In this document: piece after piece, positions 29,658 to 37,870 of the stretch
How the letters are laid out: each line of letters begins with the position of its first letter
Numbering within the stretch: the stretch's first letter is position 1
Source of the DNA: an uncultured Verrucomicrobiota bacterium
Lineage (GTDB): Bacteria; Verrucomicrobiota; Verrucomicrobiia; Limisphaerales; UBA9464
Assembly (NCBI GenBank): GCA_903939515.1
Contig: CAJAHH010000046.1
Span: forward strand, 1 to 42,689
Direction of reading: 5' to 3'
Length of the DNA: 42,689 nt
The notes under the pieces: generated by a model
Databases searched by the model: none
Seen by the model: only the letters and a program-made list of their open reading frames with translations
What the model was told of the DNA's origin: nothing
Program-made: the position numbers and the translations under genes

Positions 29658-29724
29658 GGATGAGGAATAGTTGAGAACTCCCGAAAATGTCCGTCACCCC
29701 TCCCCACAACGCAAGGGCTACTAG

Positions 29725-29930
29725 GTAGGGACCGATCTCCGAGCGGTCCGCGTGTGCCGACCCTGCTCCGAGGTAGGGACCGATCTCCGAGCGGTCCGTG
29801 TGTGCCGACCCTGCTCCGAGGTAGGGACCGATCTCCGAGCGGTCCGTGTGTGCCGACCCTGCTCCGAGGTAGGGACCGATCTCCGAGCGGTCCGTCCCCA
29901 CCGACGCGGCGCTTTCGGAGAAATCTCCCT
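29725..29930. repeat. 48-bp tandem repeat plus flanking module (dispersed hairpin element)
   Basis: Units start at 29725, 29773, 29821 and 29869; three are complete and nearly identical (one C/T difference at unit position 27) and the fourth stops after about 27 bases. Each contains GGACCG and CGGTCC arms (unit positions 5-10 and 20-25) separated by 9 nt, so each could form a hairpin. Positions 29908-29930 then match the reverse complement of 105-127. It fills most of the 404-bp gap between the leftward propeller gene and the DUF455-ATP-grasp gene. Frames through it give repetitive translations, an artefact of the 48-bp period. Confidence 0.85.
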
Positions 29931-30061: not shown

Positions 30062-32230
30062 GTGGAATTGCGCGAGTTTGCCGAGCGGATCCTCTGCGCG
30101 ACGACGCTGGAGGAGAAGCTCATCGACCCGCCCGGAGAACGGCTCACCGACGAGCGTCCCGGGCCCGCGTGGGATTTTTCCGCCGAACCGGGCCGACCGG
30201 CCGAATTGCGCTTCAAGCCATCGGGCTCCGACAAGGCGGGCACCGCGGGCAAGGCCGAGTTTCCGGGCCTGCACGGACTGGATAATGAGACGGGGCGCGG
30301 CAAGGTCCTGCACTTCTTCGCCAATCACGAACTCCTGGCCACCGAATTGATGGCTTTGGCGCTCCTGCGTTTCCCCGACGCGCCCCCGGCCTTTCGTCGA
30401 GGCGTCCTGCACACCTTGCGCGAGGAGCAGGAACACGTACGCCTGTACCTCGACCGCATGAAGGCCTGCGGCATCCGGTTCGGCGAACTGCCTGTTAGCG
30501 GCTATTTTTGGCGTTCGGTGGCCCCGATGCGCCAGCCGATGGACTTCGTCACCGGCCTGAGCCTCACCTTCGAGCAGGCCAATCTCGATTTTGCCCGTGT
30601 CTTTTCTCGGGGGTTCGCCGAGGCGGGCGACCTAGAGACAGCCGCCTTGCTGCAGCGCATCTTGCACGATGAGATCGGGCACGTAGCCCACGGATTGAAG
30701 TGGTTCCGCCAGTGGAAGGATCCGAGCTCCAGCGATTGGGACGCGTTCTGCGGCTCCCTGCGCTTTCCGCTGTCGCCGCAACGGGCCAAAGGCGTGGAGT
30801 TCAACCTAGAAGCCCGCCGCGCAGCGGGTCTTGAGCCCGAGTTCATCGCCCAGTTGGAACTCTTCGCCCGCTCCAAAGGGCGCACGCCGCAAGTCTTCCT
30901 CTTCAATCCGCTGGCCGAGGGATACATCGCCCGCGGCCTCGGATTCACTCCCGCCGCCCCGGCCCGTCAATTGGCCCGCGATCTGGCCCACCTGCCGCAG
31001 TTCTTGGCCCGCCGCGACGACGTGGTAGTGGTGCCCGAGGCTCCGGCCCCGGACTTTCTGGCGACCCTGAAATCAGCCGGCTTCGAACTGCCCGAGTTCG
31101 TGGTGGCCCCGGAGGGCGTTCGATTGGGCAATGGGCACGGCAACGGCCATGGCCATGGGCTCACCGATTTGCTCGGCCAACGCAAACTCGGCGGCCTGCG
31201 CCCCTGGGCCTGGGCCCCGGATAGCTTGGAACGCTTAGGCCCGCTGTTCCTGCAAGTAACCGGCGATGACCGGGGCCCGGACGACTGCTTCAACTCCCGC
31301 ATCGCCGAGCTGTATTCCAAGGCCTGGAGTGCGCGGTTTTTGGGGGAAATCCATTCGGAACTCGCGGCGGTCTTTCCGGCGCTATGCTCGGTCGAGACAA
31401 TCGGGCTTCCCGTCACTGAGTTGCCCTCAGCCCTAGCAGCCATCAGTGATTTCCGGGCTCGTGGATTCCACCGCTTGGTCGTCAAGCAAGCCCTCGGATT
31501 GGCCGGGGCCAATGCCATCCGGCTTTGGGAACCCGAACTCCTCGACACCCAGCGCCGCTGGATGGCCGACGCTCTGGAGGCCGGTCAAGTCCTGGTGGTG
31601 GAACCTTGGCTCGAACGCCTGGCCGATTTTTCGGTGCAATTAGAGCGGACGGACGGGGGCTTGAAACGCATCGGCTTCACCGATCTCTTCAACGACCACC
31701 GCGGACAGTTCCTCGCCAATGGGGCGAGCCCGGGCTTTGAGCGACGTCCGCCGGCGCGGGTGGTGCGGGCCTTCAACTCCTGGCCGGATGCACCTGGACT
31801 CCTGCGGCGGGTGTACGACGTCATCGCCTCGGCGCTCGAAACACGGTTGGCCGCAATCGGTTTTTGTGGGCCCGTCGGCATCGATGCCCTGGTGTGCCAA
31901 ACACCCGAAGGCCCCCGGCTCAAGCCCGTGGTGGAGATTAATCCGCGCTACACCATGGGCCGCCTCACCCTCGAGCTCATGCGGGTCGTGGCTCCCGGCA
32001 GCCATGGACTTTTCCGACTCGTTAATCGATCCCAGCTCAAGGCCTCCGGGTTCGCTACCTTCGCCGACTACGCCCAAGACGCGGTGCGCCGGCACCCCCT
32101 TCACTTGGCTGGTTCGCCACAGCCTCGCCTCCGCGAGGGCGCAGTCTGCCTCAACGATCCCTCTCGGGTTCAAGTTTGCCTGGCCGTGTGGGTTGTGGGT
32201 CGAAACGAAACAATCTTGTCAACAACCTGA
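30062..32230 (+). CDS. DUF455 ferritin-like / ATP-grasp fusion protein
   Basis: A 722-aa cytosolic protein with two enzymatic halves. Residues 1 to about 260 are DUF455, a ferritin-like four-helix fold; probable di-metal ligands are E95, E122, H125 (REEQEH), E171 (FEQAN), E204 and H207 (HDEIGH). Residues about 270-440 look like a pre-ATP-grasp domain and contain a Gly/His linker near 356-367 (GNGHGNGHGHG). Residues about 440-700 form an ATP-grasp core: K475 (VVKQALGLAGAN), D608 (GPVGIDALV) and E625/N627 (VVEINPRYTMG). ATP-grasp enzymes ligate carboxylates to amines or thiols. I infer an amide-forming oxygenase-ligase; the substrate is unknown. The start is GTG at 30062 (VELREFAERIL, as in DUF455 relatives); TTG at 30026 is the alternative. 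No operon partner. Confidence 0.85.
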   Translation: MELREFAERILCATTLEEKLIDPPGERLTDERPGPAWDFSAEPGRPAELRFKPSGSDKAGTAGKAEFPGLHGLDNETGRGKVLHFFANHELLATELMALALLRFPDAPPAFRRGVLHTLREEQEHVRLYLDRMKACGIRFGELPVSGYFWRSVAPMRQPMDFVTGLSLTFEQANLDFARVFSRGFAEAGDLETAALLQRILHDEIGHVAHGLKWFRQWKDPSSSDWDAFCGSLRFPLSPQRAKGVEFNLEARRAAGLEPEFIAQLELFARSKGRTPQVFLFNPLAEGYIARGLGFTPAAPARQLARDLAHLPQFLARRDDVVVVPEAPAPDFLATLKSAGFELPEFVVAPEGVRLGNGHGNGHGHGLTDLLGQRKLGGLRPWAWAPDSLERLGPLFLQVTGDDRGPDDCFNSRIAELYSKAWSARFLGEIHSELAAVFPALCSVETIGLPVTELPSALAAISDFRARGFHRLVVKQALGLAGANAIRLWEPELLDTQRRWMADALEAGQVLVVEPWLERLADFSVQLERTDGGLKRIGFTDLFNDHRGQFLANGASPGFERRPPARVVRAFNSWPDAPGLLRRVYDVIASALETRLAAIGFCGPVGIDALVCQTPEGPRLKPVVEINPRYTMGRLTLELMRVVAPGSHGLFRLVNRSQLKASGFATFADYAQDAVRRHPLHLAGSPQPRLREGAVCLNDPSRVQVCLAVWVVGRNETILSTT

Positions 32231-32370: not shown

Positions 32371-33222
32371 GTGCCCCGAACTTCATGGAATTCAGCTCGT
32401 TGTCTGCCTCTCCAGAAGCAATCTGGCGGATTTACCCTCATTGAGTTGCTGGTAGTCATTGCGATCATCGCGATCCTAGCCGGTTTGCTCCTGCCCGCCC
32501 TTGCGAGTGCCAAGCAGAAGGGAAATCAGGCCGTCTGTTTGAGCAATCTGCGCCAAGTCTCCTTGGGCACGACGATGTATGCTCAGGACAATGCAGACTC
32601 GATGCATTACTACATCGATTCGGACGGAAAACCGCAGGTCCCCAACCATGGGCAGTGGACGCTGACTCCGAGTCACAACGCGCTGCTAGATCTTCAAAAT
32701 CCCAATCAGCGGGTTATCTCTTATTGGGGCGTAGCCTATGTCAGTTACTTTGGTGGGGCACGCCGCGCCTTCCGCTGCCCGAGCGCCAAGATTGTCGACG
32801 AGTGGCGGGAAACCGGTTTGGCCTATCCGAGCGAGTTTTGGCGCAATTCGACCTACGGCATTAATCGCTACGTGGCCCTGAACCCAGGGACGGTCTACAC
32901 GGCCGATCCGACGCTTCCTCGAAAAATTAGCGAAATCCCAAGCCCCCAGACGACCGTGTTTGCTCAGGACTCGGCCGAGCAGCGGATGGAGGGACATGAC
33001 GACAGTCTTGGGATCTTTCCGGGTTATAAGGAGGGCCTCATCCAATGGAAAGTTCGGTTGGCCAGTCTCTATCCCGGAGTCCGGATGGAGTTCGAGTGGT
33101 TCCGCCACAATCGCCAGTGCTCCACACTTTGGCTACCCGGCAACGTGTCCACCATCCGCTACAGCAAGGGGGTGGATTATCGCTGGTACACCGGCGAACT
33201 CCCGCAGGAAAGCCCTCGATGA
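32371..33222 (+). CDS. Type II secretion/pilin-like protein with degenerate H-X9-DG motif
   Basis: A 283-aa pilin-like protein. The prepilin site [20 protein letters not shown] is at about residues 20-39, with F at the cleavage position and E at mature position 5, and a basic leader (RTSWNSARCLPLQKQ). The usual C-terminal H-X9-DG is altered: HNRQCSTLWLPG has PG where DG is expected. Cysteines at the C-terminus of the helix region (QAVCLSNLRQV) and in FRCPSAK are typical of the family. The start is GTG at 32371. The next gene starts 34 bp downstream, so they are probably cotranscribed. Function unknown; no secretion apparatus in the window. Confidence 0.8.
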   Translation: MPRTSWNSARCLPLQKQSGGFTLIELLVVIAIIAILAGLLLPALASAKQKGNQAVCLSNLRQVSLGTTMYAQDNADSMHYYIDSDGKPQVPNHGQWTLTPSHNALLDLQNPNQRVISYWGVAYVSYFGGARRAFRCPSAKIVDEWRETGLAYPSEFWRNSTYGINRYVALNPGTVYTADPTLPRKISEIPSPQTTVFAQDSAEQRMEGHDDSLGIFPGYKEGLIQWKVRLASLYPGVRMEFEWFRHNRQCSTLWLPGNVSTIRYSKGVDYRWYTGELPQESPR

Positions 33223-33256
33223 TTTGTTCTCCGTATTCCAACTCAACCTCCACTCC

Positions 33257-36200
33257 ATGAACCCGAAAACCACCCCCATCGCATTGGCGGTCCTGCTGTC
33301 GGTTCCTGTCCTGCAGGCAGGCATCACCGACCAATTGGTGACTCACCTCACCTTTGATTCCAACTTGCTGGATATCTCCGGCAAAAGCCATCACGGCACC
33401 GCCGTAGGTAACATCCAGTACGGCCCCGGGCAGGTCGGAACGGGCGCTGTTCAACTCTCATTCAAGAAGGACGGCACCAGCTTCAACTACGTCACGTTGG
33501 GGGCTCCTGCCGACCTCAACTTCGGCACCTCGACGGATTTTTCACTGAGCTTCTGGACCAAGTTCCAACAGTTCATCTTTGACCCGCCGTTCATCGGCAA
33601 CAAGGACTGGCTCAGCGGTCAGTATCAGGGATGGATGGTGGCCACGGGAACCGATGGACGTCTTCAGTGGAACTACGGTGGTTCACCGGGTCAGCGCAAA
33701 GACTACGATGGCCCGGGAAGCACCCTGAACGATGGTCGTTGGCACCACGTGGTGGTCACCTTTCTGCGCGCGGGCGAAGTGATGACCTATTTGGATGGGG
33801 CGCTGGTTGATGAGCGCGATGTCTCCGCAAGCCTCAACACTGTGGACACCGTGGTCGGACAGGCCGTCAATCTGGGTCAAGATGGCACCGGTCGGTACAC
33901 CGATGGCAACAGCGTAGAGATCAGCGATTTAATGATGGATGATCTGGGAATCTGGCGACGGGTGTTGACGGCCGAAGAGTCCAAGGCCATTTACGAAGCT
34001 GGGTTGGCTGGCAAGGCGCTTGAGACGGTTGTTTCGACTCCGACGGCTCCCGTTCTGGTTCGCCAACCGTCGGCCGCAACGGTCGTGGCCGGTGAAAGCC
34101 TCACCTTGCGAGTGCTCCCCCGCGGAACCTCCCCCTTCACCTTCCAGTGGCGTCGTGGTTCGGTGAATCTCCCTTTAGCGACCAATGCCGTGCTCAATCT
34201 GAGCAATGTTCAGGCCTCGGATGCAGGCCAGTACACCTGCGTCGTCGGCAACAGTGTCGCGAGTGTAGCGACGGACTCGGCTGAGATCACCGTCGACGCC
34301 CAACAGGCACCGACGATCGCCGAACAACCCCTGAACGTCGCTGTGGGACCCAACGGCCGCGCCCAGTTTCAGGTGCGTGCGGCCGGCGTCAACCCCATCG
34401 CTTACCAATGGTTCCGCAACGGATCTCTCATTGCCGGGGCCACACAACCGACCTTGGTGCTGGCCCGAGTTCAATCGGGTGATGCCGGGCGCTACACCGT
34501 GCAAATCCGTGCCGCCAACGGACAGACTATCTCAAGCCAGGAGGCGACGCTGACCATTGTGGACGACATTCGCCAGGGCTTGGTCACCCACCTGACCTTC
34601 GACACCGATTTCAGCGATGCGTCCGGTCGCAACAACCATGGAACCCCGGTCGGATTGCCGACCTTGGTTGAGGGCCGTGTGGGCAAGGGCGCCTTGCGGT
34701 TTTCCCAGAAAGCCGACGGTTCAGAGTTCAACTACGTGACGCTCGGAACGGCGGCCGATTTGGAATTCAGCGTGGATGCCGATTTCTCGTTCTCCATGTG
34801 GGTGAAGTTCAGCAATTGGCAGCGCGACCCGGTGTTTATCGCCAACAAGAATTGGAACAGTGGCGGCAATGTCGGCTATGCGCTGGCCACCGGTGCCGAC
34901 GGGCGTTTCCAATGGAATTATGCCGAGCAGGTGGGTGAGCGCCGCGACTACGACAGTGGTCCCGGATTGGTGGGTGACGGCAGTTGGCATCATGTCGCAG
35001 TGACCTTCCAACGTGGCGGGCAAGCGGTGACCTTTGTGGATGGCAAAGAAATCAATCGCCAACCGTTGCCGACGACCGGAACGACCGTCAGCCCGGGCCT
35101 GCCGACCAACATCGGTCAGGATGGCCGCGGCAACTACACCGACAACAGCACGGTGAGCATGGTAGATGGCACCATTGACGATGTGGCTATCTGGCGTCGT
35201 TCGATCACTTCCGACGAAATTCTGGGCATTTACCGCAAGGGTCAGTTTGGGGCCAACGTCCAGGAAAAGGCCCTCAGTGAGTCACTCGTCGCGTGGCTGC
35301 CCCTAGATTACGACACGTCCGATCGTTCCGGCCGCGGCAATCATGGTGTCCGCGCGGGCAATCCCCGATTTGTCGAGGGTCGTTCGGGTGGTGCGATCGC
35401 GGTGACCTCGATCACCAACGGTTCGTCCTTCAACTACGTTTCCCTGGGTGCCCCTGCCGATCTTCAGTTCGGCAAGGACATCAGCTTCTCGGTCTCGCTT
35501 TGGACTTCGTTCACCAACTGGACCGGTGACCCGGCCTTCATTGGTAACAAGGACTGGCGCAGTGGCGGCAATCAGGGCTGGGCGGTCGCCACGGCGGGCA
35601 ACGGTCGCCTTCAGTGGAACCTGGGCGACGGCGATGCCGGTGGCCGCAGCCGCCGCGACTACGATGGTCCGGGTGGCACGTTGAACAATGGGGCGTGGCA
35701 TCACATCGCCACCGTCTTCGATCGTCTTCAAGGCGTCGCCATCACCTATCTCGATGGCGCTGCGGTGAGCACCAACTCGATCTCCGGCGACCTCGATTCT
35801 ATCGACACGGCCGCGGGTCTGGCCGTCAACATTGGTCAGGATGGTTTGGGGGCCTACACCGACAATGGTGCGGTGGGCCTTCGGGATGGCCGAATCGACG
35901 ATGTCGCTGTCTGGCGACGATCGCTCGGGGCTGCCGAGGTTCAGACCATCTTCCAACGGGGCCAACAAGGGTTGAACCTCTTCGGGATGGCTGCTCGCAC
36001 CAATTCGTTGCCCAATGGTGTGGCATCCGGAGACGTGACGTCTGATTCAGTGGTTTTGTGGACCCGTTCACTCGTGCCGGGTGTCCTTCGTTTCGGAGTC
36101 TCGACCAACAGTTCTTTGGATCCGTTGGTTTTTTCGAGTGCCGTCACCAATTTGCAGCCGGAGGTTCCGGTCAAGGTGTCCGTCACGGGACTCAATCCGG

Positions 36201-37870
36201 GCGTCCGCTACTTCTATCGGGTTTTGGATGGGCTTGAGAACAGTGCCTTTGGAACCTTCAAGACTGCGCCCGCTCCCCAAGCCTCGGTCGGGCTCCGCTT
36301 CGGAGTCAGTGGCGATTCCCGCGGTGAATTGGCGCCGTATCCGTCGATTGGCAACGTGGCCAGCCGCCGCCTCGATTTCTTTGTTAATCTGGGTGATACC
36401 ATTTATGCCGATGTGCCGTCGCCGGCGGTGACCAATTCCCAGGTCCGCACGTTGGAGCAGTTTCGTCGCAAGCACGCCGAAGTGCTCGGCAATCAGCGAG
36501 GCGTCCCGTCGATGGCGGACCTTCGGGCAAGCACGGTGCTCTTCACCACGATTGACGACCATGAGGTGATCAACGATTTCGCGGGCGGTGCGGCTGTGTC
36601 GTCGGATTCCCGCTTCGACACCACCGGTAAGCTCATCAACGAGACCCAACTTTATCGAGACGGTCTTAAAGCCTTCTCCGAGTTCAATCCGCTCAAGGAT
36701 GTGACTTACCAGACTCCGGGGGTCGCCCGCACCGATGGCAAACCCAAGCTGTATCGCGCCGCTCGATACGGTCTGGATGCCAGCCTCTTCCTGCTCGACG
36801 CGCGATCGTTCCGGGATGCCGAGTTGACCGCTCCCGAGGATCCCAACAACGCCTTGCAGGTGGGTGCTTTCCTCTCGCAGTCGATGGATCTCAATCCGTT
36901 GACCGGACAAGCGCTTCCGCGCCGCACGATGCTCGGACAAGCTCAACTCAGTGACCTGAAGAGCGATCTATTGGCCGCGGAAAAAGCCGGAGTAATTTGG
37001 AAATTCATTGGTGTCCCTGAACCCATCCAGAACCTCGGTGTGTTGGCTGCCAGCGACCGGTTTGAGGGGTATGCCGCCGAGCGTTCGGATATTCTCGGGT
37101 TCATCCACACCAACCGCATCCGCAACGTGGTGTTCATCGCGGCGGACATCCACGGGACATTGATTAACAATCTGACTTATCAGCCCGGCAGCCCGGCCGC
37201 GCCTCAGATTCCGGTGCGCTCCTGGGAGATCACCACCGGTGCCATCGCGTATGATGCGCCGTTTGGCCCTACCGTGTTGGATTTGGCTGCAGGAGTGCCG
37301 TCGGGATCCGGGACGTTGTTGAGCCAGTTCCTCGCGTCCTTGAAGCTTCCCAATCGGACCGCCTTCGATGCCTTGCTGACACCGGTTCAGAAGGACCAAG
37401 CCATCACCGGATTGGTCAATTCTCAGATCCAACCCTTGGGATACACCCCGCTTGGGCTCGAGGATTCAGGTCTGGATTTCCGGGTTGAGACCGGAGGGTC
37501 GGTTGCGACCTTCACCTATGGTTGGACGGAGTTTGAGATTGATTCAGCCACCCGTGCGTTGCGGGTGACCACCTACGGTCTCCCTAGCTATGCGGCCAAC
37601 CAGATCAATGATCAGCTGCTGTTGGCGCAACCGGCCGTGGTCAATCGTTTCACGGTCTCCGCTGAGAAACCGGCATTGCAACTGAGGCGCTTGGCCACCG
37701 GTTTTCGGGTGGTCTGGCCGAAGTCTGAGGAAGGGTATCGTCTGGAACGAACCGTCAATTTGGGTGCCTCAGCCAATTGGACCCCAGTCGAATCGACGGT
37801 GGTCGGCGATGAAAACTCGGCGGCCGTCACCGACGAGGCAGCCGCATTTTATCGCCTCCGCAAACCCTGA
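33257..37870 (+). CDS. LamG-Ig-Ig-LamG-LamG-PhoD exported phosphoesterase mosaic
   Basis: A 1537-aa exported protein. The signal peptide ends near residue 22 (IALAVLLSVPVLQAG). LamG-like domains occupy about 25-250, 440-670 and 680-910; each has the LVTHLTFD / NYVTLGxxADL / WHHVxVxFxR pattern. Between the first two lie two Ig-like domains (about 255-440; FQWRRGSVNLPL, YQWFRNGSLIAG). A PhoD-like alkaline phosphatase/phosphodiesterase follows from about 920: GVASGDVTSDSVVLWTRS, metal-site segments SGDSRGE (about 1018), LGDTIYADV (about 1046), TIDDHEVINDF (about 1100) and IAADIHGTL (about 1292). The last 65 residues resemble those of the 1381-aa protein, ending FYRLRKP. The LamG parts probably bind surface polymers and deliver the phosphatase; this is inference. 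The ATG at 33257 is chosen because an upstream extension lacks a signal peptide. Confidence 0.9.
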   Translation: MNPKTTPIALAVLLSVPVLQAGITDQLVTHLTFDSNLLDISGKSHHGTAVGNIQYGPGQVGTGAVQLSFKKDGTSFNYVTLGAPADLNFGTSTDFSLSFWTKFQQFIFDPPFIGNKDWLSGQYQGWMVATGTDGRLQWNYGGSPGQRKDYDGPGSTLNDGRWHHVVVTFLRAGEVMTYLDGALVDERDVSASLNTVDTVVGQAVNLGQDGTGRYTDGNSVEISDLMMDDLGIWRRVLTAEESKAIYEAGLAGKALETVVSTPTAPVLVRQPSAATVVAGESLTLRVLPRGTSPFTFQWRRGSVNLPLATNAVLNLSNVQASDAGQYTCVVGNSVASVATDSAEITVDAQQAPTIAEQPLNVAVGPNGRAQFQVRAAGVNPIAYQWFRNGSLIAGATQPTLVLARVQSGDAGRYTVQIRAANGQTISSQEATLTIVDDIRQGLVTHLTFDTDFSDASGRNNHGTPVGLPTLVEGRVGKGALRFSQKADGSEFNYVTLGTAADLEFSVDADFSFSMWVKFSNWQRDPVFIANKNWNSGGNVGYALATGADGRFQWNYAEQVGERRDYDSGPGLVGDGSWHHVAVTFQRGGQAVTFVDGKEINRQPLPTTGTTVSPGLPTNIGQDGRGNYTDNSTVSMVDGTIDDVAIWRRSITSDEILGIYRKGQFGANVQEKALSESLVAWLPLDYDTSDRSGRGNHGVRAGNPRFVEGRSGGAIAVTSITNGSSFNYVSLGAPADLQFGKDISFSVSLWTSFTNWTGDPAFIGNKDWRSGGNQGWAVATAGNGRLQWNLGDGDAGGRSRRDYDGPGGTLNNGAWHHIATVFDRLQGVAITYLDGAAVSTNSISGDLDSIDTAAGLAVNIGQDGLGAYTDNGAVGLRDGRIDDVAVWRRSLGAAEVQTIFQRGQQGLNLFGMAARTNSLPNGVASGDVTSDSVVLWTRSLVPGVLRFGVSTNSSLDPLVFSSAVTNLQPEVPVKVSVTGLNPGVRYFYRVLDGLENSAFGTFKTAPAPQASVGLRFGVSGDSRGELAPYPSIGNVASRRLDFFVNLGDTIYADVPSPAVTNSQVRTLEQFRRKHAEVLGNQRGVPSMADLRASTVLFTTIDDHEVINDFAGGAAVSSDSRFDTTGKLINETQLYRDGLKAFSEFNPLKDVTYQTPGVARTDGKPKLYRAARYGLDASLFLLDARSFRDAELTAPEDPNNALQVGAFLSQSMDLNPLTGQALPRRTMLGQAQLSDLKSDLLAAEKAGVIWKFIGVPEPIQNLGVLAASDRFEGYAAERSDILGFIHTNRIRNVVFIAADIHGTLINNLTYQPGSPAAPQIPVRSWEITTGAIAYDAPFGPTVLDLAAGVPSGSGTLLSQFLASLKLPNRTAFDALLTPVQKDQAITGLVNSQIQPLGYTPLGLEDSGLDFRVETGGSVATFTYGWTEFEIDSATRALRVTTYGLPSYAANQINDQLLLAQPAVVNRFTVSAEKPALQLRRLATGFRVVWPKSEEGYRLERTVNLGASANWTPVESTVVGDENSAAVTDEAAAFYRLRKP

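What the first reader, a model, noticed from the sequence alone, without database searches (positions are those of the whole stretch)
30062..32230. DUF455 ferritin-like domain fused to a complete ATP-grasp ligase
One frame joins a di-metal ferritin-like domain (E95, E122, H125, E171, E204, H207) to a pre-ATP-grasp and ATP-grasp core (K475, D608, E625, N627), bridged by a Gly/His-rich linker. DUF455 is related to MiaE-like non-heme di-iron hydroxylases, while ATP-grasp enzymes form amide, thioester or ester bonds. Joining them suggests a single enzyme that hydroxylates or desaturates a substrate and then conjugates it, a combination I do not know as a characterised system. No gene on either side explains the substrate.
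Basis: partly seen in the sequence, partly recalled or inferred. Interest (0 to 1): 0.65.

Follow-up and report, generated by a model that had tools for sequence, protein, structure and literature searches.

The report
Iron-type oxidase fused to ATP-grasp ligase
A single protein found in many Verrucomicrobiota bacteria carries what look like two intact active sites, an iron-type oxidase (DUF455) and an ATP-driven amide-bond ligase, and one branch of relatives has lost the oxidase but kept the ligase, which suggests that the enzyme first joins two small molecules and then oxidises the product.

Summary
The fusion is real. One GTG-started frame (30062-32230, 722 aa) joins DUF455 (PF04305, E=1.9e-45) to a pre-ATP-grasp plus ATP-grasp ligase. 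No Pfam ATP-grasp core model matches, but the predicted structure (pLDDT 88) has the fold: best matches are ATP-grasp peptide/amino-acid ligases (VIA Z 23.9-27.1; next tier below 20). Fused forms occur in 22 of 387 sampled genomes of the phylum, in two classes, and about 125 of 320 of the order. The six metal ligands and K475, D608, E625, N627 are invariant in the scorable rows of 119 distinct fused frames.

Corrections: the helix-1 ligand is more likely E90 than E95. The Gly/His stretch is a genus-level loop inside the pre-ATP-grasp domain; the domains meet at residues 263-275. New: six genomes, one clade (support 0.993), have lost DUF455 and kept the ligase residues, with no DUF455 above cut-off elsewhere. 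No conserved neighbour names a substrate and no activity is shown. New variant of a known kind.

The parts
30062..32230 (+). Whole fused gene, 722 aa, GTG start, stop at 32228-32230
30215..30847 (+). DUF455 ferritin-like di-metal domain (residues 52-262); predicted ligands E90, E122, H125, E171, E204, H207
   Evidence: PF04305; fold; conservation
30848..30886 (+). Junction between the two domains (residues 263-275), ending in the GRTP motif before the first strand of the pre-ATP-grasp domain
   Evidence: best PDB matches start at residue 274-276; standalone Bacteroidota ATP-grasp proteins begin here
30887..31318 (+). Pre-ATP-grasp domain (residues 276-419; end approximate)
   Evidence: (PF18604, sub-threshold)
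31127..31159 (+). Gly/His-rich loop (residues 356-366), a genus-level insert inside the pre-ATP-grasp domain, not the domain bridge
   Evidence: (low pLDDT at 351-370)
31319..32227 (+). ATP-grasp catalytic part (residues 420-722): K420, K475, E514, R519, D608, E625-x-N627, R629

Best explanation
It is a two-active-site enzyme. The C-terminal ATP-grasp unit activates the carboxylate of an amino acid or other small acid as an acyl phosphate and joins it to an amine (amide or peptide bond). The N-terminal DUF455 four-helix bundle binds two metal ions, most likely iron, with E90/E122/H125/E171/E204/H207 and uses O2 to oxidise (hydroxylate, desaturate or cleave) the same substrate line. Most likely order: ligate first, oxidise the conjugate second. 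Shown: the fusion, both sets of conserved residues, both folds as predictions, selection on both halves, and a clade without DUF455 that retains the ligase. Inferred: metal identity, O2 use, bond type, order, substrate and product.
For: ATP-grasp half: VIA Z 27.1 (3wvr), 25.8 (8ynd, 'ATP-grasp peptide ligase'), 24.1 (7r8p), 23.9 (8yi6 BesA), then PurK and GAR synthetases below 20; sequence profiles touch 7r8p at E=0.0044 and 8ynd at 0.026. The four catalytic features listed in PMC4431377 section 5 are met by K420 (K in 108 of 119), K475 (119 of 119), D608 and E625/N627 (117 of 117 scorable). DUF455 half: the 2-His/4-carboxylate set is invariant in 115-117 scorable of 119 and kept in four standalone DUF455 proteins; the fold matches ferritin-like proteins, among them aldehyde-deformylating oxygenases (Z about 14, 182-188 residues). 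Order: six genomes in one clade lack the DUF455 bundle and keep all ten ligase positions checked, with no DUF455 above cut-off elsewhere in them; mangotoxin ligases build the peptide before the diiron oxidase acts (PMC13185094 section 8). The two halves diverge in step (Mantel r 0.92, 0 of 999 permutations as high, 106 representatives).
Against: No activity, metal, substrate or product is known. Bacterioferritins and Dps-like proteins match the DUF455 half about as well (Z 13-14.6), so oxidase chemistry is not forced; Foldseek E-values for that half are weak (best 0.097). No redox partner or other pathway gene is conserved nearby: no neighbour family is in more than 14 of 101 loci (mechanical ORF calls). 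The clade without DUF455 could also mean the two activities were never sequential, and its ligase dN/dS (0.16-0.21, dS above 1) is slightly higher than two fused control pairs (about 0.09 and 0.17). The relative placement of the two active sites was not available (pTM 0.68, no PAE).
Confidence: 0.45

Rival explanations
1. Oxidise first, then ligate: DUF455 oxidises a free small molecule and the ATP-grasp half conjugates the product.
For: Same anatomy; DUF455 is N-terminal and the slower-evolving half (mean pairwise distance 0.33 against 0.53).
Against: The ligase persists in six genomes without a DUF455 above cut-off; the mangotoxin precedent runs the other way. Domain order in a chain says little about reaction order.
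Confidence: 0.25
2. The ligase is the enzyme and DUF455 is an accessory: metal storage or ferroxidase, O2/redox sensor, or oligomerisation module. Its loss in one clade is then simple loss of an accessory.
For: Loss with the ligase residues kept; ligase dN/dS about 0.16-0.21 between three members of that clade; bacterioferritin-like and Dps-like fold matches.
Against: All six ligands are invariant and the N half has lower dN/dS than the C half in all six pairs compared, more constraint than expected of a spacer or oligomerisation module.
Confidence: 0.25
3. Artefact or pseudogene: a chance frame or mis-assembly.
For: None found for the window; six of the full-span rows in relatives carry one in-frame stop.
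Against: Full-length relatives in many genomes; low dN/dS in both halves.
Confidence: 0.01

Closest known systems
Standalone DUF455 (PF04305) proteins of Alphaproteobacteria
   Same: Same domain and same six ligands; 27-31% identity to the window's N half
   Different: End where the fused protein runs on into the pre-ATP-grasp domain; no function known to me; E95 is D
Standalone ATP-grasp 'hypothetical proteins' of Bacteroidota (Prevotella, Parabacteroides, Bacteroides)
   Same: Align over the C half and start at the strand where the fusion joint lies; K475, D608, E625, N627, R629 kept
   Different: No DUF455; 20-22% identity; linker lysine is R
ATP-grasp peptide/amino-acid ligases 3wvq/3wvr (PGM1, recalled), 8ynd, 7r8p (SAOUHSC_02373; LdmS recalled), BesA 8yi6
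   Same: Closest solved folds, VIA Z 23.9-27.1 over 335-379 residues
   Different: 14-18% identity; the aligned chains (364-458 residues) leave no room for a fused ferritin-like domain; different substrates (recalled)
Mangotoxin pathway MboA with MboC/MboD (PMC13185094)
   Same: Diiron oxidase working with ATP-grasp amino-acid ligases
   Different: Separate genes; the oxidase is a heme-oxygenase-like HDO, not ferritin-like DUF455; a dedicated reductase (MboB) is encoded with it
Aldehyde-deformylating oxygenase (ADO)
   Same: Ferritin-like fold; most ADO rows align 182-188 residues at Z about 13-14, against 135-158 for bacterioferritin, Dps and rubrerythrin rows; like ligand pattern (recalled)
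   Different: No ligase; 10-17% identity, so fold kinship only. A toluene monooxygenase chain aligns more residues (201) at lower Z (13.3)

Membership tests
DUF455 (PF04305) | Match above Pfam gathering score | tested here: met
   155.8 bits against 34.3
DUF455 (PF04305) | E + ExxH + E + ExxH metal-ligand set | tested here: met
   E90, E122/H125, E171, E204/H207 invariant in scorable fused rows and in four standalone members
ATP-grasp superfamily | Match to a Pfam ATP-grasp core model | tested here: not met
   No core model on the window protein at E<=1; ATP-grasp_3 touches 2 of 24 relatives, best 0.077. Divergent sequence; the fold and residue rows decide
ATP-grasp superfamily | ATP-grasp fold with pre-ATP-grasp domain | tested here: met
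   Foldseek best 2.3e-14; VIA Z up to 27.1 over residues 276-722
ATP-grasp superfamily | Linker K/R, strand-2 K, D in the fourth strand of the second domain, ExN motif (PMC4431377 section 5) | tested here: met
   K420 (108 of 119), K475, D608, E625-x-N627; placement in the strands is and my reading
PGM1-type peptide ligases | PreAtp-grasp PF18604 above its cut-off | tested here: not met
   21.2 bits against 27.5; 8 of 24 relatives match at E<=1, best 7e-05
PGM1-type peptide ligases | Peptide-bond formation | not testable with these tools
   No assay; fold kinship only
LdmS (NF047900) | NCBIfam equivalog match | tested here: not met
   No match to the window protein at E<=1; one of three Bacteroidota relatives reaches 31.4 of 475 bits, the other two none
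MiaE-like tRNA hydroxylases | Match to a MiaE model | tested here: not met
   None at E<=1 for the window protein
MiaE-like tRNA hydroxylases | Specific structural kinship to MiaE | tested here: inconclusive
   Only the fold matches were seen, which do not settle it
Ferritin-like diiron oxygenases | O2-dependent substrate oxidation | not testable with these tools
   Ligands and fold agree, but bacterioferritins and Dps-like proteins match about equally

The most novel reading that the evidence does not exclude
A self-contained, single-protein pathway: one gene, with no conserved helper genes nearby, ligates two common metabolites and then oxidises the peptide-like product on its own diiron site, giving many Verrucomicrobiota a shared, still unknown small molecule. 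The clade without DUF455 makes the unoxidised form. As far as my searches show, it would be the first fused DUF455/ATP-grasp oxidase-ligase and the first function proposed for DUF455.
Probability: 0.3. Interest if true: 0.75.

Novelty: new variant of a known kind. Interest (0 to 1): 0.5.

Why it matters
I found no paper centred on DUF455: 15 papers hold the word, none in title or abstract (listing only). Fusion to a ligase whose chemistry can be guessed gives a handle on its substrate: find what the ligase joins, and the oxidase substrate may follow. The clade without DUF455 is a natural control that makes the order of steps testable. If the reading is right, diiron/ATP-grasp peptide chemistry, known from gene clusters, also exists as one portable gene in a phylum with few characterised metabolites (last point recalled).

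Tried and rejected
Conserved operon partner: 101 loci compared (some from the same genome through two collections), 96 with the target recognised after a crude overlap filter; commonest close neighbours (ABC-F-like ATPase, DEAD helicase with a small partner, Xaa-Pro-peptidase-like) occur in a handful each and look like housekeeping; these names are my reading of the sequences. Standalone verrucomicrobial ATP-grasp relatives: the weak hits with 389-406 aa frames (L074, L076, L077) read as PurK (my recognition), so apart from the deletion clade I found no unfused relative in the phylum sample. Anti-phage defence: no PADLOC match at E<=0.01. MiaE membership: no sequence match, and no MiaE row among the listed fold matches, which excludes nothing. 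Other phyla: the genome tool could not be centred on a Bacteroidota plasmid locus, and the one genome-contig scan kept only 80 of 299 confirmed loci, so fused forms outside Verrucomicrobiota are not excluded. Some of those 80 records are titled Akkermansia, Klebsiella or Proteobacteria; I take these as mislabelled bins, untested. Deletion candidates: of nine genomes checked, G737 and G645 were cut by contig ends (G645 carries DUF455 on another contig) and G840 was not read, leaving six (G837, G825, G823, G046, G285, G836). In one search L088 and L149 were searched as G625 and G626; their contig lengths equal those of G837 and G825, so I count them once. An IQ-TREE run did not finish; the clade supports are FastTree's.

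Full report
Observation. The frame 30062-32230 (+) encodes 722 aa from a GTG; the family alignment starts at the same residue. Pfam gives DUF455 at residues 52-262 (155.8 bits, cut-off 34.3) and a sub-threshold PreAtp-grasp stretch (21.2 bits, cut-off 27.5); no ATP-grasp core model appears at E<=1. The genome holds one copy of the protein and one DUF455.

Structure. AlphaFold2 on an alignment of 24 relatives gives pLDDT 88, pTM 0.68. Residues 274-722 match ATP-grasp peptide and amino-acid ligases best: 3wvr Z 27.1 (rmsd 3.4, 379 aligned), 8ynd 25.8, 7r8p 24.1, 8yi6 BesA 23.9; N5-CAIR and GAR synthetases follow below Z 20. Foldseek's top 21 rows are chains of 8ynd, 8ynq, 3wvq, 3wvr, 7r8p and 7r8q (best E 2.3e-14; 50 rows shown). 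That 3wvq/3wvr is PGM1 and 7r8p is LdmS is recalled. The DUF455 half alone (pLDDT 88.9) matches ferritin-like proteins: Dps-like PA4880 Z 14.6, aldehyde-deformylating oxygenases Z about 14 over 182-188 residues, bacterioferritins Z about 13-14. Foldseek E-values for this half are weak (best 0.097, none at 0.001), and by the tool's own note Z near 13-14 for a helical bundle is not strong. This supports a ferritin-like bundle, not a reaction.

Residues. From all loci then held I took 3805 stop-to-stop frames; 195 matched both halves, 119 of them distinct (some are truncated by contig ends). E90, E95, E122 and H125 are invariant in 115 scorable rows, E171 in 116, E204 and H207 in 117; K475 in 119 of 119; D608, E625, N627, R629 in 117 of 117 scorable; K420 is K in 108 of 119. 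The ATP-grasp residues fit the four superfamily features listed in PMC4431377 section 5 (read).

Joint. The best PDB matches begin at model residues 274-276 (8ynq at 303), and standalone Bacteroidota ATP-grasp proteins start at the same strand. DUF455 therefore sits at the native N-terminus of the ligase, joined by residues 263-275; the GRTP-x4-FN spacing was found in 111 of 119 frames. The Gly/His run (356-366) is a loop inside the pre-ATP-grasp domain. A loose pattern for it hits 7 of 103 scorable frames, all from the window's own genus, and L008 of the same genus lacks it.

Distribution. 37 of 59 near relatives match, and 152 of 320 genomes of the order. By my count of that listing, 126 rows in 125 genomes span the model from positions 1-4 to 693 or beyond; six of these rows carry one in-frame stop; the rest of the listed rows are cut at contig ends, partial, or deletion forms (below), and the weakest matches were not listed. 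In the class, 44 of 286 genomes match the C half (these include G154, a PurK-like chance hit by my reading, and G285, a deletion form). In the phylum, 23 of 387 match the C-half profile. DUF455 searched in the same 387 genomes gives 22 matches at E<1e-40, all in frames of 648-776 aa, and these are exactly the 22 genomes with a strong C-half match (the 23rd is G154). A second class has 6 of 118, including four of the 22. The distribution is patchy. A genome-contig scan confirmed 299 loci and kept the best 80, most titled Verrucomicrobia, Limisphaerales or the like.

Selection and co-inheritance. Over five same-genus pairs and one same-family pair, dN/dS is 0.015-0.159 for the DUF455 half and 0.143-0.239 for the ligase half, lower for DUF455 in each pair. 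Distances of the two halves correlate at r=0.92 (106 representatives of 113 full-length rows, 0 of 999 permutations as high).

Natural deletion. Six genomes (G837, G825, G823, G046, G285, G836; families f8, f165, f165, f12, f11, f8) carry the ligase without the four-helix bundle. In G837 the first 23 or so residues of the DUF455 N-terminus remain and run straight into the ligase strand (tblastn 1-23, E 0.005); G836 shows the same kind of junction but is open at a contig edge; in the other four the remnant is decayed and is my reading by eye. All ten ligase positions checked are kept in all six. They form one clade (FastTree support 0.993, 121 tips) nested among fused forms, 65-84% identical to each other. 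Between three of them ligase dN/dS is 0.16-0.21, with dS above 1; two fused control pairs gave about 0.09 and 0.17, so a slight relaxation is possible. None has a DUF455 match above cut-off elsewhere; G836 has one weak hit (E 7.6e-5) below it. Completeness of these genomes is 86-98%, so absence is not certain in each. The simplest reading is one old loss, after which the ligase stayed useful.

Surroundings. Window neighbours are a CorA-type transporter, a PAS/histidine kinase, a DUF6797 protein, a pseudopilin-like protein and a LamG/Ig/PhoD protein; none suggests a substrate. Across 101 loci no neighbour family occurs in more than 14.

Mechanism. ATP-grasp enzymes make acyl phosphates and pass them to an amine or other nucleophile (established, recalled). 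The nearest folds are amino-acid and peptide ligases, so an amide or peptide bond is the best guess. A 2-His/4-carboxylate bundle usually binds two iron ions and reacts with O2 (recalled for the fold class), but storage-type ferroxidases share such ligands. The pairing of diiron oxidases with ATP-grasp amino-acid ligases is a known kind: PMC13185094 reports 1447 HDO sequences near an ATP-grasp ligase and at least 25 unique clusters, and shows for mangotoxin that the ligases build a tripeptide which the diiron oxidase then desaturates (passages and section 8 seen). Those oxidases have the heme-oxygenase-like fold and are separate genes. Together with the deletion clade this favours ligate-then-oxidise. 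From recall only: BesA and BtrJ also conjugate before an oxygenase acts; passages on BtrJ in PMC11405602 and a search of PMC12123629 for BesE (nothing found) did not document this.

Literature. No paper held both DUF455 and ATP-grasp; 15 hold DUF455, none in title or abstract (listing only); no paper held ATP-grasp, ferritin-like and fusion together; a five-term search (at least four terms) gave only the mangotoxin paper and a phage survey. [quoted passage not shown] The library lacks most subscription journals.

Verdict. Function remains inferred.

Noticed in passing
29723-29895: A 48-bp unit repeated 3.6 times (99% matches) just upstream of the gene; this stretch has 62 matches in the genome, itself included, so the unit is a dispersed element; it looks partly palindromic by eye.
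   Followed up: partly
L179-L186; other places: A second, weaker DUF455-like group in Verrucomicrobiota, mostly 390-620 aa frames, E 2e-14 and weaker; in the one member scanned the DUF455 match lies in the C-terminal half and a weak ferritin-like hit in the N-terminal half: perhaps a tandem ferritin-like protein.
   Followed up: partly
L207, L221: In Prevotella nigrescens and Bacteroides finegoldii the standalone ATP-grasp relative lies beside an AAA-family ATPase gene and nifJ in both.
   Followed up: no
L209: A Streptomyces plasmid relative of the ligase half sits with an acyl carrier protein, a radical SAM protein, Gfo/Idh oxidoreductases and an aminoglycoside phosphotransferase-family gene, like a small biosynthetic cluster.
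   Followed up: no
L222, 4922-5566: Genome G484, which carries the fused gene, also has a standalone 215-aa DUF455-like protein (37.8 bits, weak MiaE_2 hit at E 0.037).
   Followed up: partly
G677:C205 and G677:C446: One genome of the order shows two full-span fused copies; its contamination is given as 5, so the second may be foreign.
   Followed up: no
32960-37870: A very long frame with three LamG stretches, Ig-like and PhoD phosphatase domains next to the gene.
   Followed up: no
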